64,000 nt of DNA, taken from Polytrichum commune (Eukaryota; Streptophyta; Polytrichopsida; Polytrichales; Polytrichaceae). The notes beneath the pieces are model-generated. The model saw only the letters and a list, made by a program, of their open reading frames with translations, was not told where the DNA came from and ran no database searches. Positions within the stretch are counted from its first letter, which is position 1; every line of letters begins with the position of its first letter. This document shows, piece after piece, positions 5,442-61,485 of the stretch. A program made the position numbers and the translations under genes. The stretch spans positions 58,171,554 to 58,235,553 of the forward strand of contig OX485803.1 in assembly GCA_950295325.1 (NCBI GenBank). The letters run 5' to 3'.

Positions 5442-7567
5442 CCTCAATATTTGACTGGTATGACAAGATTGATACACATGAGCAGGGTCTTCAATGCCAT
5501 TGTTAATATTGATTATTGACGCCATGCAATCACCTACATAACGGTCCCACATTGGTAACTACGGGAACTCGGTTGGAAGTCACCATACAAAATACAAAAT
5601 TTGGTTGGATACAAAACACAAATATGGATGAATTGGACCATGGGTCGTTTGTGAGGTATATAACTTTATGGAATATTCCTTACACTATTGTGGGATTCCC
5701 AACATCATTTGTCCTAAAAGGCCTGACATCCGTTCAATTTGTACGTCCTTTCAATCTTGTCGCAATTCAATCGATCATATGGCAATGATATTTAGATCAT
5801 TTTTGGCCATGCCATAACTTGCCGTACCATGCTCTATTGGTCCACTACCTTTTTGGCGCCGTTTTTTTCCCCCTCCCACGGGGGATTATGTGCGGTCCCA
5901 ACCAATGAGACAATGACATGTGTCAACATGCATCAAAACACATCATCTAACCCCCTAAATGCCTAAGAAGCCAGAGAATGGGTTGTTGAGCATTCTTCAT
6001 ATATATCTTTCTAAGGCGGACTTACCTCTTTTCTTTTTTCTTCGTCTTGTTTCTTTCTTGCACTTTGAACTTACCATTTGTTTCCTAGCGGGACCTTGAA
6101 GTGGTTGGAGCCCTTAATTTCCTTTGTTACAAGTTTTACTACACGGGGGAAAGTAATGACGTCAATGACATTATTTTGTGTTTATTTCGTTTTCCCCACC
6201 AAATTATGAAACTCACAGTTTTAGCCAATCACGTCAAAAATCAATCAATTTTGATACATCTTGGAGTTTTAATTATATAATGAAGAGGAATGCTTTTGAA
6301 ATGACTTGATGGAGATCGAGGAAGTTGATCCTTATTGCAACCACATGAGCATGGTCTAAAATTATCTTTTTGCAATTTCCTTTTCTATGCTAAGGTCTCT
6401 AATTCATATATTGCAATAATGTAGCACAATAGCTGGTTCGTGCACCTCGAAACGTGCCAATCTAGCCATAGAGCCTACAAAGTTCAAATCGGTTGTTTGG
6501 GTATCATAGACAATTAACATCTTCACTTGGGTAGAAACTTATAGTAACAATAAAGTGTTTAGATAGCATTGCGTGACTCCAAATAGCAAGTGACTCTAAA
6601 TACCACCACATTTCCGGGTTCCAACATCTAGAAATTTGGAATGTGAGAAATATGATTTTGAGAAAAACTATTCAGACTCGTAGCTCGTCTTATGCCCCTC
6701 GTATGGAGAATTGAACATACGAGGTATGCACATGTTATTCGGTTGGTTTTTTAATTGGACACATATATTGAATGGCGTGTGGTTGGAGTGGGCCTAGTCT
6801 AAGTAGACAAAACTCACCATACTTAGCCCATTAGACCTCATATGGGCATTATTTCTTGATTTCCCCTTGGCTTGCGCTGGTTCTCCCAAGGTGGTTGTAG
6901 TTTGGTTTCGTTCTTGCAATTGGATTTTCAATTTGTGCCCCAATTTATTTATTTTTATATTAATAATAATAATATTTGTTAGCCCAATAGAACCCACCAT
7001 TCTTATAGAAATGGGAAGCGGGTGGGCAAAAACTAGGCTCATTTATGTTAAAACCTCATTTGTGTTGGTGGAAACACAATGGAATATATCATATCATGTA
7101 AATGACTATTTTTAGATGCATTGATTCCGGAAATAGCATCAGAGATCCCACATGAGTATGGTGGAGTCTAGCTGGAATGAATCAACCCTCTACCTTGTAG
7201 GAGACACGTTTTTACTAGAGCCCTCATCCATCCTGGATGAGGGTACATAGACACTATGATTTCCCAAGCCTATGGAGGGAGAGGGAACTATCACATGTGA
7301 GTGTACCTCTCATTCATCCAACACAAAAGCCTTGAAATAGTATGCAACCCAAAGGTTGCTTTTAAAGTGGATATGATGCCGGAATTAGTATTAAAGACCC
7401 CAAATTAGTGTCTTTGAGGTCATTTGGGATGAATCAGGAACAAACTTACATGGGTCAAGTTCTTACGTTGGATGGATGCAAGGTGCGCTTGTATAGTACG
7501 ATAAGTCCCTCTCTTCCCCTTGGACAACGTTTGTGGTCCACCTCCGCTACTTCAAGTTCTTGCTTTA
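5442..7567. other. gene-free stretch
   Basis: No gene recognised. Around 6560-6600 a fragment (gcgtgactccaaatagcaag) resembles the terminal region of the 217-bp MITE family found at 7784, 11932 and 54679. Confidence 0.55.
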
Positions 7568-7569
7568 TA

Positions 7570-7693
7570 CTCCCTATGTCCCAAAATGATTGTCCTACCC
7601 TCTGGAGTTTTTTTATCCCAAAATGTTTGTCCTACAAATAGTTTGGGACATAAAACTCCGGGGGGAGGGACAATCATTTTGGGACGGAGGGAG
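7570..7693. mobile_element. Stowaway-like MITE, 124 bp
   Basis: Starts CTCCCTATGTCCCAAAATG and ends with the inverted CATTTTGGGACGGAGGGAG, flanked by TA on both sides (7568-7569, 7694-7695). The arms fold through TGTCCTAC...GGACAATC and TTTTATCCCAAA...TTTGGGACATAAA. Length, terminus and TA target match the Stowaway group, which is mobilised in trans by Tc1/mariner transposases. Arms differ at several sites, so it is older than the copy at 55559. Confidence 0.9.
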
Positions 7694-7783
7694 TATAAGT
7701 TAAGCATGTCATAAGGTGTCACGAGATCAATGCAAAGGGCTAGGTTTATGAGCCCAACGCTTTGAGTTGGCCCCACCACTATA

Positions 7784-45080: not shown

Positions 45081-47126
45081 TTTATTGCATGCCATGTAGG
45101 ACTCTATGTATATTTACTCACCCATTCAAATCTCCTTGGTCCTTGAATCCCTCGAACTCTAATAAATAATGTTTGGTAATAACACTTGAAAATAATAAAC
45201 TCTAATGCATTACATTGAAGTGGAATGTTCTCCATTTTTTTTATTGACAGTGAGAGATTTTAGATTTCAATGGTCACGGCCCCTCAAGCTCCAGTGGAAA
45301 GTGCCCCTTCATCCCAACGCTCAGTTTGCATAACTGAAAAAAATTTCCTCCCTAAATCTACACAATTTAAGCACTAGATTTGGCACTCAAAGTGAGGGTT
45401 AAAAAACCAGTCTGTTGTCACTTGGAGTTATGTGGTTCTATGGTTTATCTTGAGAACAACAATTATCTTCTATGAAGCATGTTATCTTAAGTGTTTTGCA
45501 TGCTGTAATTTTTTGCCACTCTGTCACCAATTAAGTACATAGTAAAAATACACATTAATGTGTAATCTTAAATAAATACCTTACACTATACGTATGACAT
45601 AGATATTCCAAATGTATGATCATTTACCTTTTGTATTCTGGTCCTAGTTACATAATATGGCTACATCATTTTAACTCATAATGCCATTTGTACCATATAA
45701 GGTTCCTTGAGTTCTACATACTGCAAATTTATCTATAGGTGTTTTGTAGTGAGGATTAAAATCACACCCCAGAAATGTTGAAGATAATTGGATGAAATAA
45801 AACCACATGTTTTTTTTTACCTCTCTTGCAATTGATTTTTCAATTTGTACCAAAAATAAAACAAAAAAACACATGTTTTTGTAGGCTTGAACTTTATGCT
45901 TTTGTGTGTGATTACGTTAGTAAAGTCTTTTTTTTTATAGGAAGTTGTTGTGCATGTTTGAGGTTGCAATTTGCAGATGGTGAAATTAGACTATTAGCAC
46001 CTTGACCAATTAAGTTTATAGGAATTTTTGGCCATGAATAATATTAGTTGCATGTTTCTAAGCACTTCTCATGCTCATAAGAACAATGATGCACGTAGAG
46101 CTATGATGAAGGGGTGCATACACGGGTGGGGCACCCTATTAGGAATCATGAATGTTTTCTTGTGATTGTTGCAAGGAATCTAAAAATGCCTCCCACATAT
46201 AAAATTATGTCACACAAAGTTGGTAGGGATATACAATCAATTTTATAACTTGAAGTTTTGTCCACGACCACTTGCATACTATTTCTTATGGTTATATTAT
46301 TATACACCTCATGCTTCAAGATGAATAATTGTACATGTTTTCTATGTGGTTGATATTACTTCATGTTTTAATCACTCCCTTACATCCTCATTTGGATGAA
46401 GGTCCTTTCTCATGTTGGCCTATAGTGGATAATTTGATGTCTGTGTTCAAAATCTAAAATCTATAAAAACATGGGTTTTTACAAATGTATAAGCTCCGTA
46501 GCTTTGTTATTTATAGATTGATTGAACTATGTTGCATCTTATAATATATGATATCACACGAAATAAAATAGTTTGCTCCCCTTTAAGAAAAACATGCAAT
46601 TGTGTCATTGATGCAATGGAAAGGACATTTGAAATAAATCAAAAACACTAATACTTTCAATTTTGGTGAATTTTTTTTATAAGGTAAACAAACTCAACTA
46701 TTTTATATTTACCTTTTCAGATGACCGACATACAACACAAGATGGCAAAATACACGCCCCTCATTGAAACCACTGCATCTTTAGGATGGCAAATTTGGCC
46801 ACTTATAGTCCTCACGCCATGAGAACGAGGGGGTTTACAAAAATAACCTCAACAACCTCAACCCATTCCATCAAAAAAAATCCAACTACAACTCCATACA
46901 ACTACCATCCAATCTCTCTTTGTCATCATCCTAAATAAATGGAGACTTGAAAGCAAAACCATGGTTACCTAGCAACCAAGCCACAAAAAAACCTTGTGCC
47001 AACGTTGACCCATTGGAGAAGGCATTCCTAAGCTCACATTGCAGTAGAAATAATGGTACTTGCTCTCACATATCTCTTAGTGCCCCCCCCCCCTCTAGGA
47101 TTCCTAACCGCAAACCTTCGTTACAA
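45081..47126. other. gene-free stretch, 2.0 kb
   Basis: C11 run at 47083-47093 near the end. No coding signal. Confidence 0.5.
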
Positions 47127-47437
47127 CAAGAACACACCCTCTCCACCATCAACAACCCTGACCCAAGGTACATGCATTCCTATCTTGCATAGGGAGAGAA
47201 GAAACGTTGACCATGTGATCAGCGTGATTGGAATACCCGTTCGACCCACCCTTGGCATTAAACCCTCAGGTCATAATACCAGTGGTGCAGGATTACTAAC
47301 CCCTCTCGGGGTGGGCACTATAGTGACACACTATACTAGTTCCTAGCTAGCCACTAGTGCCTTGAGGATACCGGACATGGAATCCCCCCAAAGGGCTTTG
47401 GGTTAGGGTTGTTGATGGTGGAGAGGGTGTGTTCTTG
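47127..47437. repeat. 38-bp inverted repeat flanking a SINE fragment
   Basis: 47127-47164 and 47400-47437 are reverse complements with one mismatch in 38 (caagaacacaccctctccac at one side, gtggagagggtgtgttcttg at the other). Between them, 47235-47400 is a minus-strand piece of the 33516 SINE (caaagggctttggg..., cactatagtgacacactata, ctagttcctagctagccact). Confidence 0.85.
47235..47400 (-). mobile_element. SINE fragment, reverse orientation
   Basis: Its reverse complement reads aaagccctttggggggat, ggcactagtggctagctagg and tatagtgtgtcactatagtg, as in 33664-33750 of the intact SINE. The pol III promoter half is missing. Another TCTA-tail-like run at 47632-47650 may belong to a further SINE copy. 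Confidence 0.8.
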
Positions 47438-48299: not shown

Positions 48300-48500
48300 A
48301 ACAGGGAGAAGTGGCTGCTAGTTACAGATGAACCAGTTGAGTTTGAGAAATAAGCGGTTGAAGCTCGAATCTCCAGGAAAAATTACTCATCATCTTAGAG
48401 AAATGGATGGAATATACCCCAATTTAATAGAGGAAAATTGCAAGATGTTGACATGTAACCGGAAACACTAGGATTTCGACCGATGATGCCCAAAACCCTT
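48300..48500 (+). repeat. AACCGGTT-bearing dispersed repeat, copy 4 of 6
   Basis: gggagaagtggctgctagtta, cagatgaaccagttgagttt, gagaaataagcggttgaag, aatataccccaatttaatag, aagatgttgacatgtaacc, ggatttcgaccgatgatgcc. Confidence 0.78.
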
Positions 48501-48599: not shown

Positions 48600-50975
48600 G
48601 AAAGTGGACGCGTTCAATTACTTGGAATGTACTTAACTGTACTTAAGCGGCAGGAATGCATTTAATCCGTTTGCAGATGTGAATCAACTTGGGTTTCTCC
48701 TTCCCCCCCAAACTACGTGCACTGTATATTACATTAATCTGACACACATTGTTAAGGCGTTGGAGACATCCAAACCAAATAATTCAATGAGACCTGCCAT
48801 GTTCATAGTGGAAAGGACACCTTTTTCACCTGCCAGCTCAACCTTCTTCGTCTCCCCCTTCAGACAGGAAGAAACTCACCATAGCAGAGCTTGCATAGCC
48901 TATAGGCTGACATTCTTGCAGCATTTTGCATTCTGGCATTTTGCACTTTGGAGTCGGTGGACGTTAACCTCTGGGAGAACTGTTTGTCTACAAGCATCCA
49001 TCTTCTTCATCCGCTCCGCCCAACTCACGCAAGGTCGGAATGCAAACCTACCGGAAGTTTGTGTGAATGTGTAGGCTGGCCGATCAGTGAGGACATGGCG
49101 ACATGGTGCTGGAAATGCTTGCAAACCAACCGATCACGAATGTGAGAGCATTCGTGATCATAAGTTGTGTGCAAGGTGATTGTAATGTGAGGCGGCAATT
49201 GTAGTTGAGAGGAGGAGAGCTCTGTCTTTGTCTTTCTCTCTGTCGACTCTGTCTCTCCCACTTGTGAGTTGGATGATGATTAATTGTATTGTAAAGCAGG
49301 CGGCATTGAGTGGCTGCTTCTTGACTTGGACCACTTTGGATGGAAATGCTTGCATATAATCTGCAGTCATGAATCTGAGGGGCTCTGTCCAGTTGCCCGG
49401 GAGCCTATAACAACAATGTAGGGTTAAGCATTGGAAGCGTCTCCTCTGTCTCTTGGTCTGTCTTGTCTCGCAACCGGCCCGACTCCATGTGGCTTGGATG
49501 GTTCTTAATTAGCAGCAGTTGCTACTTGATGACATGGATCACCCAAGACGGAAATCGCGTGAATCCGTCGTGCAATCTATCTCGAGTTATGCAGAACCAT
49601 GGAGTGTGCGAGGCAATTCTGGCTAAGAGAAAGAGAGAAAGACAGTGCTCTCGACATTGTCTCTCCCTCCAGTCGGAATCCACATTTACTGAATGTAGCA
49701 CAAAGAGTGGCTGCCTCCATTCCGTCGTGAGGCTGGTAGAGAGTGAAATGCTCATGACATGCTCCGCCGACTGACTTGCAATCACATTTTGTATGTATGT
49801 GAAGAACTGCATGTAGCATTTCCATGGATCATTTCCTTAGCGTTCATTGGGTTGAAGCTAGAGAGTTAGGCCATCTCCATGTGGCGTTCCACTTACCTTT
49901 GTCCGTAGAGCTGAAGGTGATGGTAACGGATTCCGAGCAGGTGTTCTGCTCCATGGAGTCGCGTAATCTTGTGCATCCAGTGCAATTCTTCTTAGCCTGC
50001 TGTATGTGAACCGGAGTGCACATCTCTCTAATGCAGCAGTAGGATTGGCTACTTCGATTCGGTCTCGAGGTAGCGCACATCACTGGAGGTGGAGCTAGCC
50101 ATGCCAAGTGTAGCACAGGGGAATTACGAAATGCTCACCGGCGACATGCTCCAGTGACTGATTTTCACCGCACTCTGTCTGTAGCAGCAGTGCCATATAC
50201 TTAAATGTCCACGGGATTAAGGGTGTAAGGGATTAAGGATTCCATCTCCATTTGGGCTTATATGGAGATTAAGGACTTAAGGATGCCATCTCCATGTGCC
50301 GGCTTCCGTAATACGTGACCTCTCTGGAAAGGGTGGTAAGAAAGCCACGCATTCGGACTAGGCGGCTGGTTGGTCCATTCAGTGGCTGGCTCTAAAGTGC
50401 TGCATTGTCACATAGTCGCCGCACAATGCCGCAAAATGACGCACTATGCCGCACTGTGTCACTGTCTCGAGATCGACCGATCGCTCGGTTGGTCGGTCGA
50501 GGGCATTAATCTAGACACGGTACAGGAAATGTAGAGCTTGCTTCAAGAGGTGACGTAATGCAGTTAGTTCACTGCTTCAATTCGTCCATCTCCAGATAGT
50601 GAGCCAGACATACTTCCCTCACCTCTCGATTTTCCAAGTGGAAACCTTTGTCATGTGCAGAACCTATGTGCCGAGTCACCTTACCGCGCCTGTACATGCC
50701 TGGCCTACACCTAATCCCGTGCAACCCTGTGACTCTGTGACGTCTAGTTCTGCGTTTTAGATCGATCGGTACTACTCCCCGGGGCTGTAGTTTGAAAATG
50801 TATGTAAAGGGTTTAGCTTGCTGCTGCATGCTACTGTGGCTGGTGTTTACCTAATCTCTTGCAACGTTCATTCATGCCAACGTTCCGACTGACTCTGCGT
50901 ACTTAATTGACTCTCTGCATTTCATGATTATTCCAGGTCGCGCAACCTGCAGTCAGCGACTCAGGCCGATCAAGG
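48600..50975 (+). promoter_or_regulatory. CpG-richer region upstream of the 318-aa gene
   Basis: Base composition is less AT-rich than the flanks, with CT-rich tracts (tctgtctttgtctttctctc at 49221). Short ORFs up to 131 codons carry no motif. Structural features: recurring GAAATGCT-centred blocks near 49108, 49340, 49744 and 50129 (the last two share gaaatgctca and catgctcc); a doubled segment with ccatctccat at 50242-50300; four 10-bp GCCGCACAAT-type units at about 50420-50460; a tcgaccga / tcggtcga hairpin at 50472-50500. Promoter and transcript start cannot be fixed from sequence. Confidence 0.4.
50901..50936 (+). promoter_or_regulatory. possible 3' splice site upstream of the ATG
   Basis: acttaattgactctctgcat then ttcatgattattccag ends with AG at 50935-50936: a branch-point-like TTAATTGAC, pyrimidine-rich run and CAG. 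It would place an intron in the 5' leader 39 bp before the start codon. Unproven. Confidence 0.35.
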
Positions 50976-51932
50976 ATGTCTTCCAGCGACGACCTTTTTT
51001 ATTTAAATCCCCGCCGCACCATCGCGGTATGGTGCTGGGCCCAGATGGATGCCACCATGGAGGGAGTAACCCACCTTCTGTTTCTCCTAACGACCCGAAA
51101 TCTGTGGAATGCTGGGATTCCACCCCAGCTGGAGGGTTGGGGCCCGGGCTTCCACCGTCGTGGCGGATCCCTGTTTCTCGAGCGCCTGTGGCTTTACCAT
51201 GCGGCCATGATTCTGCACTTGGTGGATGACTTTTCTGACCCATGGCAGATCCTGGACGAGGGGCGTCAGCCTGGCCAGGTGTGGCCGGGGGTGCTACGTC
51301 TGCTCAGAAGCTTCTTCTTCCCGGAGCAGCCGATCCGATCGCCTCCACCCGTTCCATCCCGCCGGCGAGCTGCGCCAACGGAGCCTATTTATATAATATC
51401 CCTACCGACTATCACCGAGGTCTCCTCAGATGAGGAGCTCTTTGATGAGTACTCACCGAGGTGCACCGATCATCGCGATGCACCGCCCAGTGTAACTGAA
51501 TCGGAGGTCTCCGAATTCGAACTAGTCGAGGAGGATGCGGAGGAGGCAGAGCAACTGATCTTTGGGCCTATGTCTCCAAACCACAGTCCACGTCCTGAAA
51601 CCATGGCAATTGCAGATGAAGATCTCCATGGATCAGTACTCCCCATGACAACTAAGCCGCATCCTCCTCATGCGATCTTTTCATTCGATGAGGAGTTCTC
51701 CGGACCCATCTCGCCGCCGAGGGCGAATCCTGTCATGATTGTTACTTTTCCAGATGATGACCACTTTGCACCGATGCCGCCGGTGGAAACTAGAGAGGTT
51801 GTCCACGGAGTTGACCACTTTCCACCGCTGCCGCCGGTGGTAATTACCGAGATCCTCGACGAAGAGGAACTCTTTCCGCCGCTGCCGCCGGTGACAGTTA
51901 CCGAAATCTTTCTCGACTCCGACTTGGCTTGA
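50976..51932 (+). CDS. unrecognised 318-aa protein with C-terminal 18-residue tandem repeats
   Basis: Longest and most convincing frame of the window. ATG at 50976 has A at -3; no earlier in-frame ATG was preferred because 5' sequence turns non-coding. Residues ~15-118 look globular: Trp-rich (VWCWAQMD; WNAGIPPQLEGWG), with helices such as THLLFLLTTRNLW and LFLERLWLYHAAMILHLVDD. Residues 119-135 are Pro/Arg-rich. Residues 136-318 are acidic and Pro-rich with repeats ending in three exact 18-residue units (54-bp period): HFAPMPPVETREVVHGVD, HFPPLPPVVITEILDEEE, LFPPLPPVTVTEIFLDSD. Looser earlier units include TITEVSSDEELFDEYSP and FSFDEEFSGPISPP. No signal peptide; net acidic; probably nuclear or cytosolic. 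Several hydrophobic-plus-acidic cores resemble SUMO-interacting motifs. No family recognised. Possible upstream exon; no clear AATAAA after the stop. Confidence 0.7.
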   Translation: MSSSDDLFYLNPRRTIAVWCWAQMDATMEGVTHLLFLLTTRNLWNAGIPPQLEGWGPGFHRRGGSLFLERLWLYHAAMILHLVDDFSDPWQILDEGRQPGQVWPGVLRLLRSFFFPEQPIRSPPPVPSRRRAAPTEPIYIISLPTITEVSSDEELFDEYSPRCTDHRDAPPSVTESEVSEFELVEEDAEEAEQLIFGPMSPNHSPRPETMAIADEDLHGSVLPMTTKPHPPHAIFSFDEEFSGPISPPRANPVMIVTFPDDDHFAPMPPVETREVVHGVDHFPPLPPVVITEILDEEELFPPLPPVTVTEIFLDSDLA

Positions 51933-52042
51933 GATTCTTGGAGGGAAGGGAGGCTGGCTGGCTGGCTGGACACCCTCATCACATACTTACCGTCTTCCGA
52001 CCTTCGTCCGCCTTTACATGTACATGGGCAATATCAGCACGC

Positions 52043-52245: not shown

Positions 52246-53613
52246 CACTGTATTCAGTGTCACGCACACTATTTTGCAAAAGGCCTAAACTGGATGCCTG
52301 GAGGTCTCAAAGTGTTGCACCTGCTAATCATCAATATGACACTATTTGTCAACCTAAGTAGAAAAATTTCAAGTAAAAATTTACCTATAGTATGACATCT
52401 ACCGTAACATATTGGGAGACTTGAGATTCTAGTTTTGCGTCTTAGTTTGCAAGGGGAAGATGTTGTTGAGCATTCTAATGTCAAGTGTCGATAATGTACA
52501 CTTTAGTCAACTTGTAGACCATTATGCAAGATAGGCATAGAGCCCATACCACTATCGAACATACTCATGCCAAGATATTAGGAAGCTCACTTGAACGCCG
52601 AGTGTCATGAGGTGACACTAATGACGAAGTTGTTGATCATTAGTGCAACCTAACATATGCCTCGAACTAGGGTAAGTGACACTGTTACACATGTCACACT
52701 GAATACCATAAGCGTCGTAGCACCCATGGAACATGGTTTGAATGAGTATAATGCGCGATACGTTCTGTGGTTGGTCGGACACACACACCATAGCCGAAGA
52801 ATCTTGGCGTTGTGTTTGAATAGTAGGTGACATGAGTACGACCTCCTGTTGAGGACACCAGTGTGCAACTAGATATGATATGTTTATGGATGATGGCTTC
52901 ATCAGTGGCATGATCCAGTTGTTCCTCAATACGGCTCCCTTGGAGGTGGAGAACTGTTGGGTGAATCGAAGTTACTCCGAGTCTTCCAGCGTAATTGATG
53001 ATTGAATGATGGCTGCATGCTGGTACACCCTACTACTGTGTCTTCCATCCACTCACCCTGGCAGTGCCGTTGCCTTTGTACAAGTCAATAGGCACCATAA
53101 ACATCTTTGTTTAATACTGTGGGCCACACTATTTATCATCATCAGCCCACATTAATTGTCTTGTGATGATGATTTGAAGGGAGGCTAGCTAGAGAGGGTG
53201 TCACATGGCACTTGGTGTAGCTACATCACAAGTCACGAAGACCATTGTGGTTAACATGACACACTGACTCCAATCTCACATTTCATAATAATAATAATAA
53301 TAATATAGGTGATGCACTTAGAGGAGTTACAGTTCTTGACATAGGTACTTGCCATTGTGTCATCCATCCACCTGTCTTTGGATATGTTGTTGTCTTTGTA
53401 CAAAGTCAATAGGCGCACTAAACATCCATGTTGAATAGTGTGGGCCACACTATATATCATCGTCAACTCACATTGATTGTCTTGCAATGACTTGGGGGCA
53501 AGCTAGAGAGGGTGTGACATGGCACTTGGTGCAGCTATATGACAAATCACGAAGGCTGCTCTAATTAACATGGCACACTGATTTGAATCATGCATTAAAT
53601 CAAATATTTAGTG
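52246..53613. mobile_element. candidate 1.37-kb TIR element containing a tandem duplication
   Basis: Left CACTGTATTCAGTGTCACG and right end AAATATTTAGTG carry TA on both sides (52244-52245, 53614-53615) and resemble the terminal-palindrome MITE ends, but pairing is short. Inside, 53030-53290 and 53340-53600 are a tandem pair: gtacaa(a)gtcaataggc, gtgggccacactat, agagagggtgt(c/g)acatggcac and acatg(a/g)cacactga at matching spacing. ORFs up to 103 codons lack motifs. Confidence 0.5.
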
Positions 53614-54897: not shown

Positions 54898-55556
54898 GAT
54901 TTCTATTGTCACAGTAAAAGTGATGAGGGTGCATGGCCTAGTTCAAAGAGCATGGCATCTAGCCTTGCCGTCGATGAGTGAGGGCCAAGTAGACCCATTT
55001 TATACATGGCTTGGGGCCAACCCGAGCATCGGCCTGATTCATGTGCAATCAAGATTTCAATCTAGCCCAAACTTTATCAACTGTTTGTAGGCCCAACCTT
55101 GTCACATGTGAAGTGATGAGGCCCGATTCTAGGTCATGATATTCTTGAGGGGAAAGTGTAGTGGAGAGAATTAACCTTTTATGGACTGACGGTAGAGATG
55201 TTTAGTTTCCAATGGATAAGCCCAATCCGGCCCATGTTGAGATTTCAAGCCAAGGAAAAGCTTGTCCCGATTTCTTCAAGCCGGCCCAAAAGGTTGGCGC
55301 CAAAATTATGCCACCTTGGATGCCACATGGGATGAGTGAGCGTTTGGGCCCAACTTTAGTATAAAACCTTTGGGTTAGATTTGATAAATCAAGCAATCCT
55401 ATTGGGCCATAATTTTAGAGTTTGGGTTGACCCTCAATCCAACCCCAGGTATAAAGTGGGCACAATCATTTCCATATTAAGGGCGTTATGGTCTTGAAAG
55501 GCAATTTTCGGTCTCTTTGAGAGTCCTTGGATTCTTTTCCCACACTTGTAATAAGA
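54898..55556. other. gene-free stretch
   Basis: No gene; gcccaa-rich sequence around 55000-55450 appears to be old repeat. Confidence 0.45.
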
Positions 55557-55558
55557 TA

Positions 55559-55665
55559 CTCCCTCCGTCCCAAAATTATAGTCCTACTCCCCGGAGTTTA
55601 ATATCCCAAACATTTTGGGATATTAAACTCCGGGGAGTGGGACTATAATTTTGGGACGGAGGGAG
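55559..55665. mobile_element. Stowaway-like MITE, 107 bp, nearly perfect hairpin
   Basis: CTCCCTCCGTCCCAAAATTA at the left and its exact inverse at the right, TA at 55557-55558 and 55666-55667. The ~50-bp arms pair throughout with a single T/C mismatch and a tiny loop near CATTT. Same terminal core as the copies at 7570 and 61208 but far better preserved. Confidence 0.95.
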
Positions 55666-55679
55666 TATATGTTTACGAA

Positions 55680-61131: not shown

Positions 61132-61207
61132 AGTGTTGGGCTAGTATATAGATGGGTGCATAATGCCAATATACAAGATCAACAAATTATGATATCAAAA
61201 CTACCTA

Positions 61208-61485
61208 CTCCCTCCATCCCAAAATGATTGTCCTACCTCCTGGATTTTTTTTGTCCCAAATTGATTGTTCGGCTTATCTGCCCAGCTAGAAATTTGAGGC
61301 TCAAAGTCAGATATTTTCGCCAAACTTTCATCATCAAGAAGTCTTTCAACATTGCAACTTCGGGGGGTGTTTTGGAGCAGTTGATGTTTTCTATTTTAAG
61401 ACTCTTACTTATACCTACTCGGTCAATGGTCAACAGAATCTCACCAAAGCTAGGAACACATACAATCATTTTGAAACGGAGGGAG
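61208..61485. mobile_element. Stowaway-like element with internal filler, 278 bp
   Basis: Left CTCCCTCCATCCCAAAATGA, right TCATTTTGAAACGGAGGGAG, TA on both sides (61206-61207, 61486-61487). Interior is not foldable like the other two copies and contains ORFs of 78-86 codons without motifs; it may be an acquired segment or the remains of a longer mariner-type parent. Confidence 0.82.

What the first reader, a model, noticed from the sequence alone, without database searches (positions are those of the whole stretch)
50976..51932. Orphan-like gene whose C-terminal half is built from an 18-residue tandem repeat
The 318-codon frame stands alone in repeat-filled DNA. Three consecutive 54-bp units encode [HL]F-x-P-[LM]-PPV-x3-E-[VI]-x5, and looser units reach back to about residue 144. 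Keeping frame through repeat growth suggests selection on the protein. The N-terminal ~110 residues are Trp-rich and probably folded, with no family I recognise.
Basis: partly seen in the sequence, partly recalled or inferred. Interest (0 to 1): 0.75.

Follow-up and report, generated by a model that had tools for sequence, protein, structure and literature searches.

The report
Single-copy plant gene with acidic repeat tail
A lone stretch of DNA in a plant genome very probably encodes a protein without recognised relatives, made of a tryptophan-rich front part and a long acidic tail carrying three copies of an 18-residue proline motif; genes of this sort are common, so it looks real but fairly ordinary.

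Summary
Window 50976-51932 (+) is a 318-codon ATG frame (334 codons stop to stop), the longest in the window, ending in a 54-bp tandem repeat of 2.7 copies. The genome (407.8 Mb, seven large contigs plus a plastid contig) is a plant; moss is my inference.

Coding is well supported though not proven. Three-base periodicity exceeds the other window segments sampled, and stays high with the repeats removed. The frame is longer than nearly all simulated frames of equal composition, and the island retains CpG. The gene is single copy, with no match in Pfam, PDB (one chance-level score), NCBIfam, PHROGs, phages, viral or prokaryotic contigs. No plant protein database was available, so 'orphan' is untested.

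The looser units are only weakly supported.

Best reading: a lineage-restricted protein with a helical N-terminal part and an acidic, probably disordered tail that repeats a binding motif. Function is inferred from composition only.

The parts
50976..51932 (+). 318-codon reading frame incl. stop (protein P0001); open without ATG from 50928
   Evidence: periodicity; single copy
50976..51329 (+). residues 1-118: Trp-rich (7 W), near-neutral part, predicted helices at low confidence
51393..51929 (+). residues 140-318: acidic (net -33), 15.6% Pro tail on the disordered side of the charge-hydropathy plot
   Evidence: low pLDDT throughout
51749..51893 (+). 54-bp tandem repeat, 2.7 copies
   Evidence: also D1/D2
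51762..51923 (+). three 18-residue units from residues 263, 281, 299: HFAPMPPVETREVVHGVD, HFPPLPPVVITEILDEEE, LFPPLPPVTVTEIFLDSD
51687..51719 (+). weak fourth copy (DEEFSGPISPP), 66 bases before the first 33-base copy of the array, same codon phase
   Evidence: 20/1000 codon shuffles
51411..51443 (+). weak older unit (residues 146-156, ITEVSSDEELF), in-frame match to residues 290-300
   Evidence: 1/300 and 9/5000 codon shuffles; the tests not significant
50800..50936 (+). possible 5' UTR or upstream intron: GTATGT donor-like and TTCCAG acceptor-like sites
   Evidence: consensus reading only, not evidence of splicing
50522..50611 (+). about 90-bp low-copy element shared with other loci, ending 365 bp before the ATG

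Best explanation
The frame is a real protein-coding exon (probably the whole coding part) of a single-copy, lineage-restricted plant gene lying in a roughly 3.7-kb unique, GC-rich, CpG-retaining island between repeats. The protein has two parts: a Trp-rich, mainly hydrophobic and probably helical N-terminal part of about 118 residues, and an acidic, proline-rich, probably disordered tail of about 180 residues. The last 60 residues of the tail repeat the motif [HL]F-x-P-[LM]-PPV, preceded by acidic residues, three times by 54-bp tandem duplication. The most likely working mode is that of a multivalent binding tail: acidic residues keep aromatic and proline residues exposed so that several weak sites can dock a partner, for example a transcriptional coactivator or a proline-recognition domain. 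Shown here: frame, repeat, single copy, coding-like periodicity. Inferred: translation, lineage restriction, disorder, binding, partner.
For: Three-base periodicity chi2 47.2 over the frame versus a maximum of 17.2 in 122 other 954-base segments of the window; with the tandem repeat left out (residues 1-255) 25.2, reached by 0 of 242 simulated chance frames of at least 200 codons; 14 of the 15 most periodic 240-base steps of the window begin inside the frame. Residues 1-125 alone 17.9, reached by 1 of 308 segments. Length beyond chance: 2 of 1000. Island CpG o/e 0.87 against a median of 0.45 in 147 other windows, 2 of which reach it; 25 kinase-domain matches of this genome have a median of 0.71 (range 0.31-1.19). 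Single copy. Tail net charge -33 over 179 residues and on the disordered side of the charge-hydropathy boundary. The relaxed acidic activation-domain rule of PMC10550315 (eq. 3) is met by 7 tiles within residues 262-318 and in 0 of 54 other long frames. Residues 282 and 300 match the EVH1 ligand pattern [FWYL]PxPhiP given in PMC8789275.
Against: Synonymous codon choice does not resemble 25 kinase frames of this genome more than shuffles do (score -0.029, z -0.76), although the genome's codon bias is weak. Periodicity does not tell strand: two antisense frames over the repeat score 24.0 and 25.4, and a frame outside the island, 47032-47343 (+), scores 20.9. No purifying signature between repeat units. 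The strict activation-domain rule (eq. 1) is not met, and the relaxed one is met by 1941 of 2000 shuffles of the tail, so it reflects composition only. AlphaFold2 gives no confident structure. No transcript, relative or protein evidence could be obtained. No WH1/EVH1 match in the genome, though that search is inconclusive.
Confidence: 0.55

Rival explanations
1. It is a member of a conserved plant or moss family, or one exon of a longer multi-exon gene, that only looks orphan because no plant protein set was searchable here.
For: The frame stays open for 16 codons upstream of the ATG, across a TTCCAG acceptor-like site, so an upstream exon is possible; outside Pfam and PDB the libraries used hold few plant proteins.
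Against: No Pfam match even at E 10, for the whole or for the halves; no paralogue found in its own genome; the frames of at least 85 codons in the island 5' of it score 3.1 to 11.7 for periodicity against 44.6.
Confidence: 0.25
2. It is a chance or decayed frame in a GC-rich, non-coding or RNA-only island; the 54-bp repeat is an ordinary minisatellite that happens to keep frame.
For: Codon choice uninformative and dN/dS between units 0.8 to 2.1; GC of 56% makes long frames easier; upstream island DNA also has CpG o/e 0.68 without frames of comparable periodicity.
Against: Periodicity without the repeat exceeds all 242 simulated chance frames; 2 of 1000 composition-matched sequences reach this length.
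Confidence: 0.14
3. It is a nuclear regulator whose tail is an acidic transcriptional activation domain.
For: Acidic/aromatic clusters DEELF, DEEF, DDDHF, DEEELF; relaxed rule of PMC10550315 met within residues 262-318.
Against: Strict rule not met; relaxed result follows from composition alone (1941 of 2000 shuffles); no DNA-binding family.
Confidence: 0.2
4. It is a ligand scaffold for an EVH1-type, SH3-type or WW-type domain through the FPPLPP repeats, comparable in layout to proteins with repeated FP4 motifs.
For: FPPLP at residues 282 and 300 fits [FWYL]PxPhiP, with flanking acidic residues, which PMC8789275 says can raise affinity.
Against: Only two of three units fit; no WH1 match in the genome at E 10 (inconclusive: searched exon by exon, and the family rang in none of the 14 control genomes).
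Confidence: 0.1
5. It derives from a transposon or an integrated virus.
For: The surroundings are rich in repeats; one weak inverted pair brackets the frame (50591-50620 and 51941-51970, 30 bases, 73% complementary), which I take as chance.
Against: The island matches elsewhere in the genome only over a 90-bp element; no viral, phage or Pfam transposon match.
Confidence: 0.05

Closest known systems
Moss orphan / lineage-specific genes (Physcomitrella; PMC4301180, passages read; YAN/AltYAN, PMC5908804, abstract and outline read, section 7)
   Same: Plant gene without recognisable family; PMC4301180 reports that 12% of cold-responsive P. patens genes lack orthologues in other Viridiplantae, and PMC5908804 that such a gene can be functional.
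   Different: Here there is no transcript or mutant and the species is not identified; no older gene read in another frame was found in four overlapping frames. YAN/AltYAN arose from a hemerythrin gene by frame shift.
Acidic activation domains, acidic-exposure class (PMC10550315, passages read)
   Same: Clusters of acidic with aromatic/leucine residues; 7 tiles within residues 262-318 meet the relaxed rule.
   Different: Strict rule not met; no DNA-binding domain found; proline-rich.
FP4-motif proteins that bind Ena/VASP EVH1 domains (PMC8789275, passages read)
   Same: FPPLP twice, flanked by acidic residues, in a tandem layout.
   Different: No EVH1 partner found in this genome (inconclusive); no homology shown.

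Membership tests
Protein-coding gene | Long stop-free frame beyond chance | tested here: met
Protein-coding gene | Coding-type three-base periodicity not due to the repeat | tested here: met
Protein-coding gene | Codon usage like other genes of the genome | tested here: inconclusive
   genome bias weak, z -0.76
Protein-coding gene | Transcript and translation | not testable with these tools
   no RNA or protein data on hand
Protein-coding gene | Purifying selection between relatives | not testable with these tools
   no related plant genome held; between-unit dN/dS of 0.8 to 2.1 does not show it
Orphan / lineage-restricted gene | No homologue outside the lineage | tested here: inconclusive
   none in Pfam, NCBIfam, PHROGs, phages, viral or prokaryotic contigs, and one chance-level PDB score (the contig scans reach close relatives only); plant proteomes not searchable
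Acidic activation domain | Charge <= -9, W+F+Y+L >= 7, diagonal (eq. 1 of PMC10550315) | tested here: not met
Acidic activation domain | -13 <= charge <= -8 and W+F+L >= 6 (eq. 3) | tested here: met
   7 tiles within residues 262-318, but composition alone explains it
EVH1 (FP4) ligand | [FWYL]PxPhiP core | tested here: met
   residues 282 and 300; the first unit has FAPMP and does not fit
EVH1 (FP4) ligand | EVH1 domain present in the same organism | tested here: inconclusive
   no WH1 match at E 10; it rang in no control genome either

The most novel reading that the evidence does not exclude
A recently born, lineage-restricted plant gene whose tail is still growing by 54-bp in-frame duplication, each duplication adding one acidic-FPPLPPV docking site, so that binding valency evolves by repeat number; the even spread of differences over codon positions would then reflect diversification of the spacer residues around a fixed core.
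Probability: 0.12. Interest if true: 0.5.

Novelty: new member of a known kind. Interest (0 to 1): 0.27.

Why it matters
If translated, it is another plant gene of no known family with a repeat-built tail, a testable example of how a lineage-restricted gene acquires binding sites by tandem duplication. It would matter more if relatives differ in repeat number under selection. As it stands it is probably one of many such genes, and its function rests on inference.

Tried and rejected
Viral, phage or transposon origin: no match; the 3,721-base island matches elsewhere in the genome only over a 90-bp element. A resemblance of residues 20-44 to a zf-RVT (LINE) tail came to mind from memory; Pfam at E 10 gives no match, so dropped. 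Other frames over the same DNA as an older gene read in another frame (as in YAN/AltYAN): no Pfam family over cut-off in the four overlapping frames scanned; one antisense frame has a score below cut-off (DUF7172, E 0.035). Six further frames around the island and ten elsewhere in the window, chosen by me from the 59 listed, gave no match over cut-off. A weak C5 match to the tail (E 0.28, 32% over 69 residues) falls in a His/Asn/Pro-rich frame and is taken as chance. The PDB match to residues 144-215 (nisin immunity protein, E 2.5) is taken as chance. Rfam scores at 48321, 49625 and 51055 are below gathering. Fold search was not run because both AlphaFold2 models are low confidence. Organism: seven large contigs of 42-78 Mb and a 146.6-kb plastid contig made me think of a moss with n = 7 such as Polytrichaceae; this rests on recall, no matching genome paper was among those listed (8 of 8 papers, 10 of 33), and a plastid of 146.6 kb would, by recall, be large for a moss.

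Full report
What was checked. The frame 50976-51932 (+) translates without a stop into 318 residues and is the longest frame of the window. Tandem Repeats Finder reports a 54-bp array at 51749-51893, 2.7 copies. The looser units upstream are marginal. Protein-level tests do not beat shuffles (1330 of 2000; 157 of 1000) and a DNA Smith-Waterman is borderline (61 of 1000). Codon-shuffle tests of in-frame DNA similarity are significant for residues 146-156 against 290-300 (1 of 300; 9 of 5000), but depend on window length (827 of 2000 at 8 codons; 5, 18, 43 and 20 of 2000 at 10, 12, 14 and 16). A fourth copy at 51687-51719 reaches 20 of 1000 codon shuffles and 21 of 1000 Markov sequences.

Where it lies. 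The window is part of a 407.8-Mb assembly of 64 contigs. Seven large contigs of 42.1 to 77.9 Mb, and a 146,561-base contig (C8) with psbA- and psbD-type hits (gene names partly by recall), with a matK-like frame before psbA (matK named by recall), show a plant. The best PDB matches to its psbA are photosystem II D1 proteins. Land plant and moss are my inference from recall.

Is it coding? Periodicity: chi2 47.2 for the frame against a maximum of 17.2 in 122 other segments of the window. With the repeat removed (residues 1-255) it is 25.2, against a maximum of 23.2 among 242 simulated chance frames. Residues 1-125 alone: 17.9, reached by 1 of 308 segments. Of the 15 most periodic 240-base steps of the window, 14 begin inside the frame. 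Reference kinase frames of this genome give 11 to 130 over their first 954 bases. Like them, the frame has high G at codon positions 1 and 3 and low G at position 2 (0.33, 0.14, 0.32 against 0.33, 0.18, 0.30), but its A at position 1 is lower (0.18 against 0.28) and its C higher (0.32 against 0.20). The length is rare by chance: 2 of 1000. CpG o/e of the island is 0.87 against a median of 0.45; 2 of 147 windows reach it. Loss of CpG in the rest would fit methylated repeats (established knowledge of plant genomes, not tested). Against: codon choice is uninformative (z -0.76), and periodicity does not settle the strand, since two antisense frames over the repeat score 24.0 and 25.4.

Selection on the repeat. 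Differences between units are 5/5/4, 5/4/6 and 7/7/7 over codon positions 1/2/3; NG86 dN and dS are 0.37/0.17, 0.36/0.31 and 0.51/0.66. This gives no support for purifying selection on the repeat. That the three units align without gaps is mild support for frame keeping (inference).

Relatives. In its own genome the frame is found once: one match each for the whole protein at E 1 and for residues 1-125 at E 10, of 2 candidates scored each; the tool warns that weak matches may be missed. The tail search at E 10 gave the frame itself and one chance-level match on C5. The 3,721-base island matches elsewhere only over about 90 bases at 50522-50611, three places listed. There is no Pfam match at E 10, no PDB relative (one chance score at E 2.5, none), no NCBIfam or PHROG match at E 1, and none in phages, viral contigs or the 84,980-species prokaryotic collection; the contig scans reach close relatives only. 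No plant proteome could be searched, so restriction to a lineage is not shown.

Protein layout. Residues 1-118: 7 Trp, 40.7% W/F/Y/L/I/M/V, net charge -3, on the folded side of the charge-hydropathy plot. Residues 140-318: net charge -33, 15.6% Pro, on the disordered side. No strong transmembrane-like stretch (highest 19-residue hydropathy 1.18). AlphaFold2 without an alignment suggests six helices within residues 12-114 at low confidence (mean pLDDT 47.7 for residues 1-137; 40.0 for the whole protein).

How it may work. The tail repeats acidic-aromatic-proline clusters. The relaxed acidic activation-domain rule of PMC10550315 (passages read) is met by 7 tiles within residues 262-318 and in none of 54 other long frames, but also by 1941 of 2000 shuffles of the tail, and the strict rule is not met. 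Two units carry FPPLP, which fits the EVH1 ligand pattern quoted in PMC8789275 (passages read); no WH1 domain was found in the genome, inconclusively. I favour a multivalent docking tail, with the partner open.

Novelty. Genes of no known family are common in mosses: PMC4301180 (passages read) gives 12% of cold-responsive P. patens genes without orthologues in other Viridiplantae, and PMC5908804 (abstract and outline; section 7) describes one origin by frame shift. I therefore rate this a new member of a known kind. I did not search for a published description of this particular gene, because the species and any gene name are unknown; the five paper searches were general.

Noticed in passing
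window 50522-50611: About 90-bp low-copy element, 82% identical to a copy at C1:10.33 Mb and 78% and 76% to two tandem copies at C7:18.278 Mb, which lie before the HLH match of a bHLH-like frame (E 4e-4, 20.5 bits against a cut-off of 20.7); a weaker third copy follows that frame, and C1:40.63 Mb holds a copy 77% identical to one of the C7 copies. The core holds a small inverted repeat; the window copy folds better than shuffles (z -2.6), the two others tested do not (-0.1, -0.4). No Rfam match up to E 1 lies on it.
   Followed up: partly
window 48304-48495 and 52250-52720: Two repeat fragments bracket the unique island; the second belongs to an abundant dispersed repeat (7,415 first-look candidates for the whole 4,901-base query, 40 scored; best rows 76-80% identity). 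On C7:28.71 Mb the two lie 163 bp apart in the same order and strand, against about 3.75 kb here; in other places listed their order or strand differs.
   Followed up: partly
window 49240-50393: Diverged direct repeats of 17-25 bases, several at spacings of 371-408 bases, upstream of the frame; may mark old tandem duplication of non-coding DNA, or chance (D3, D4, D7, D11).
   Followed up: no
window 53037-53275 and 53356-53589: Direct repeat, 78% identical over about 240 bases, starts 319 bp apart.
   Followed up: no
window 55548-55676: 129-bp inverted repeat (91% identical to its own reverse complement), with related copies near 7,566-7,701 and 61,206-61,267.
   Followed up: no
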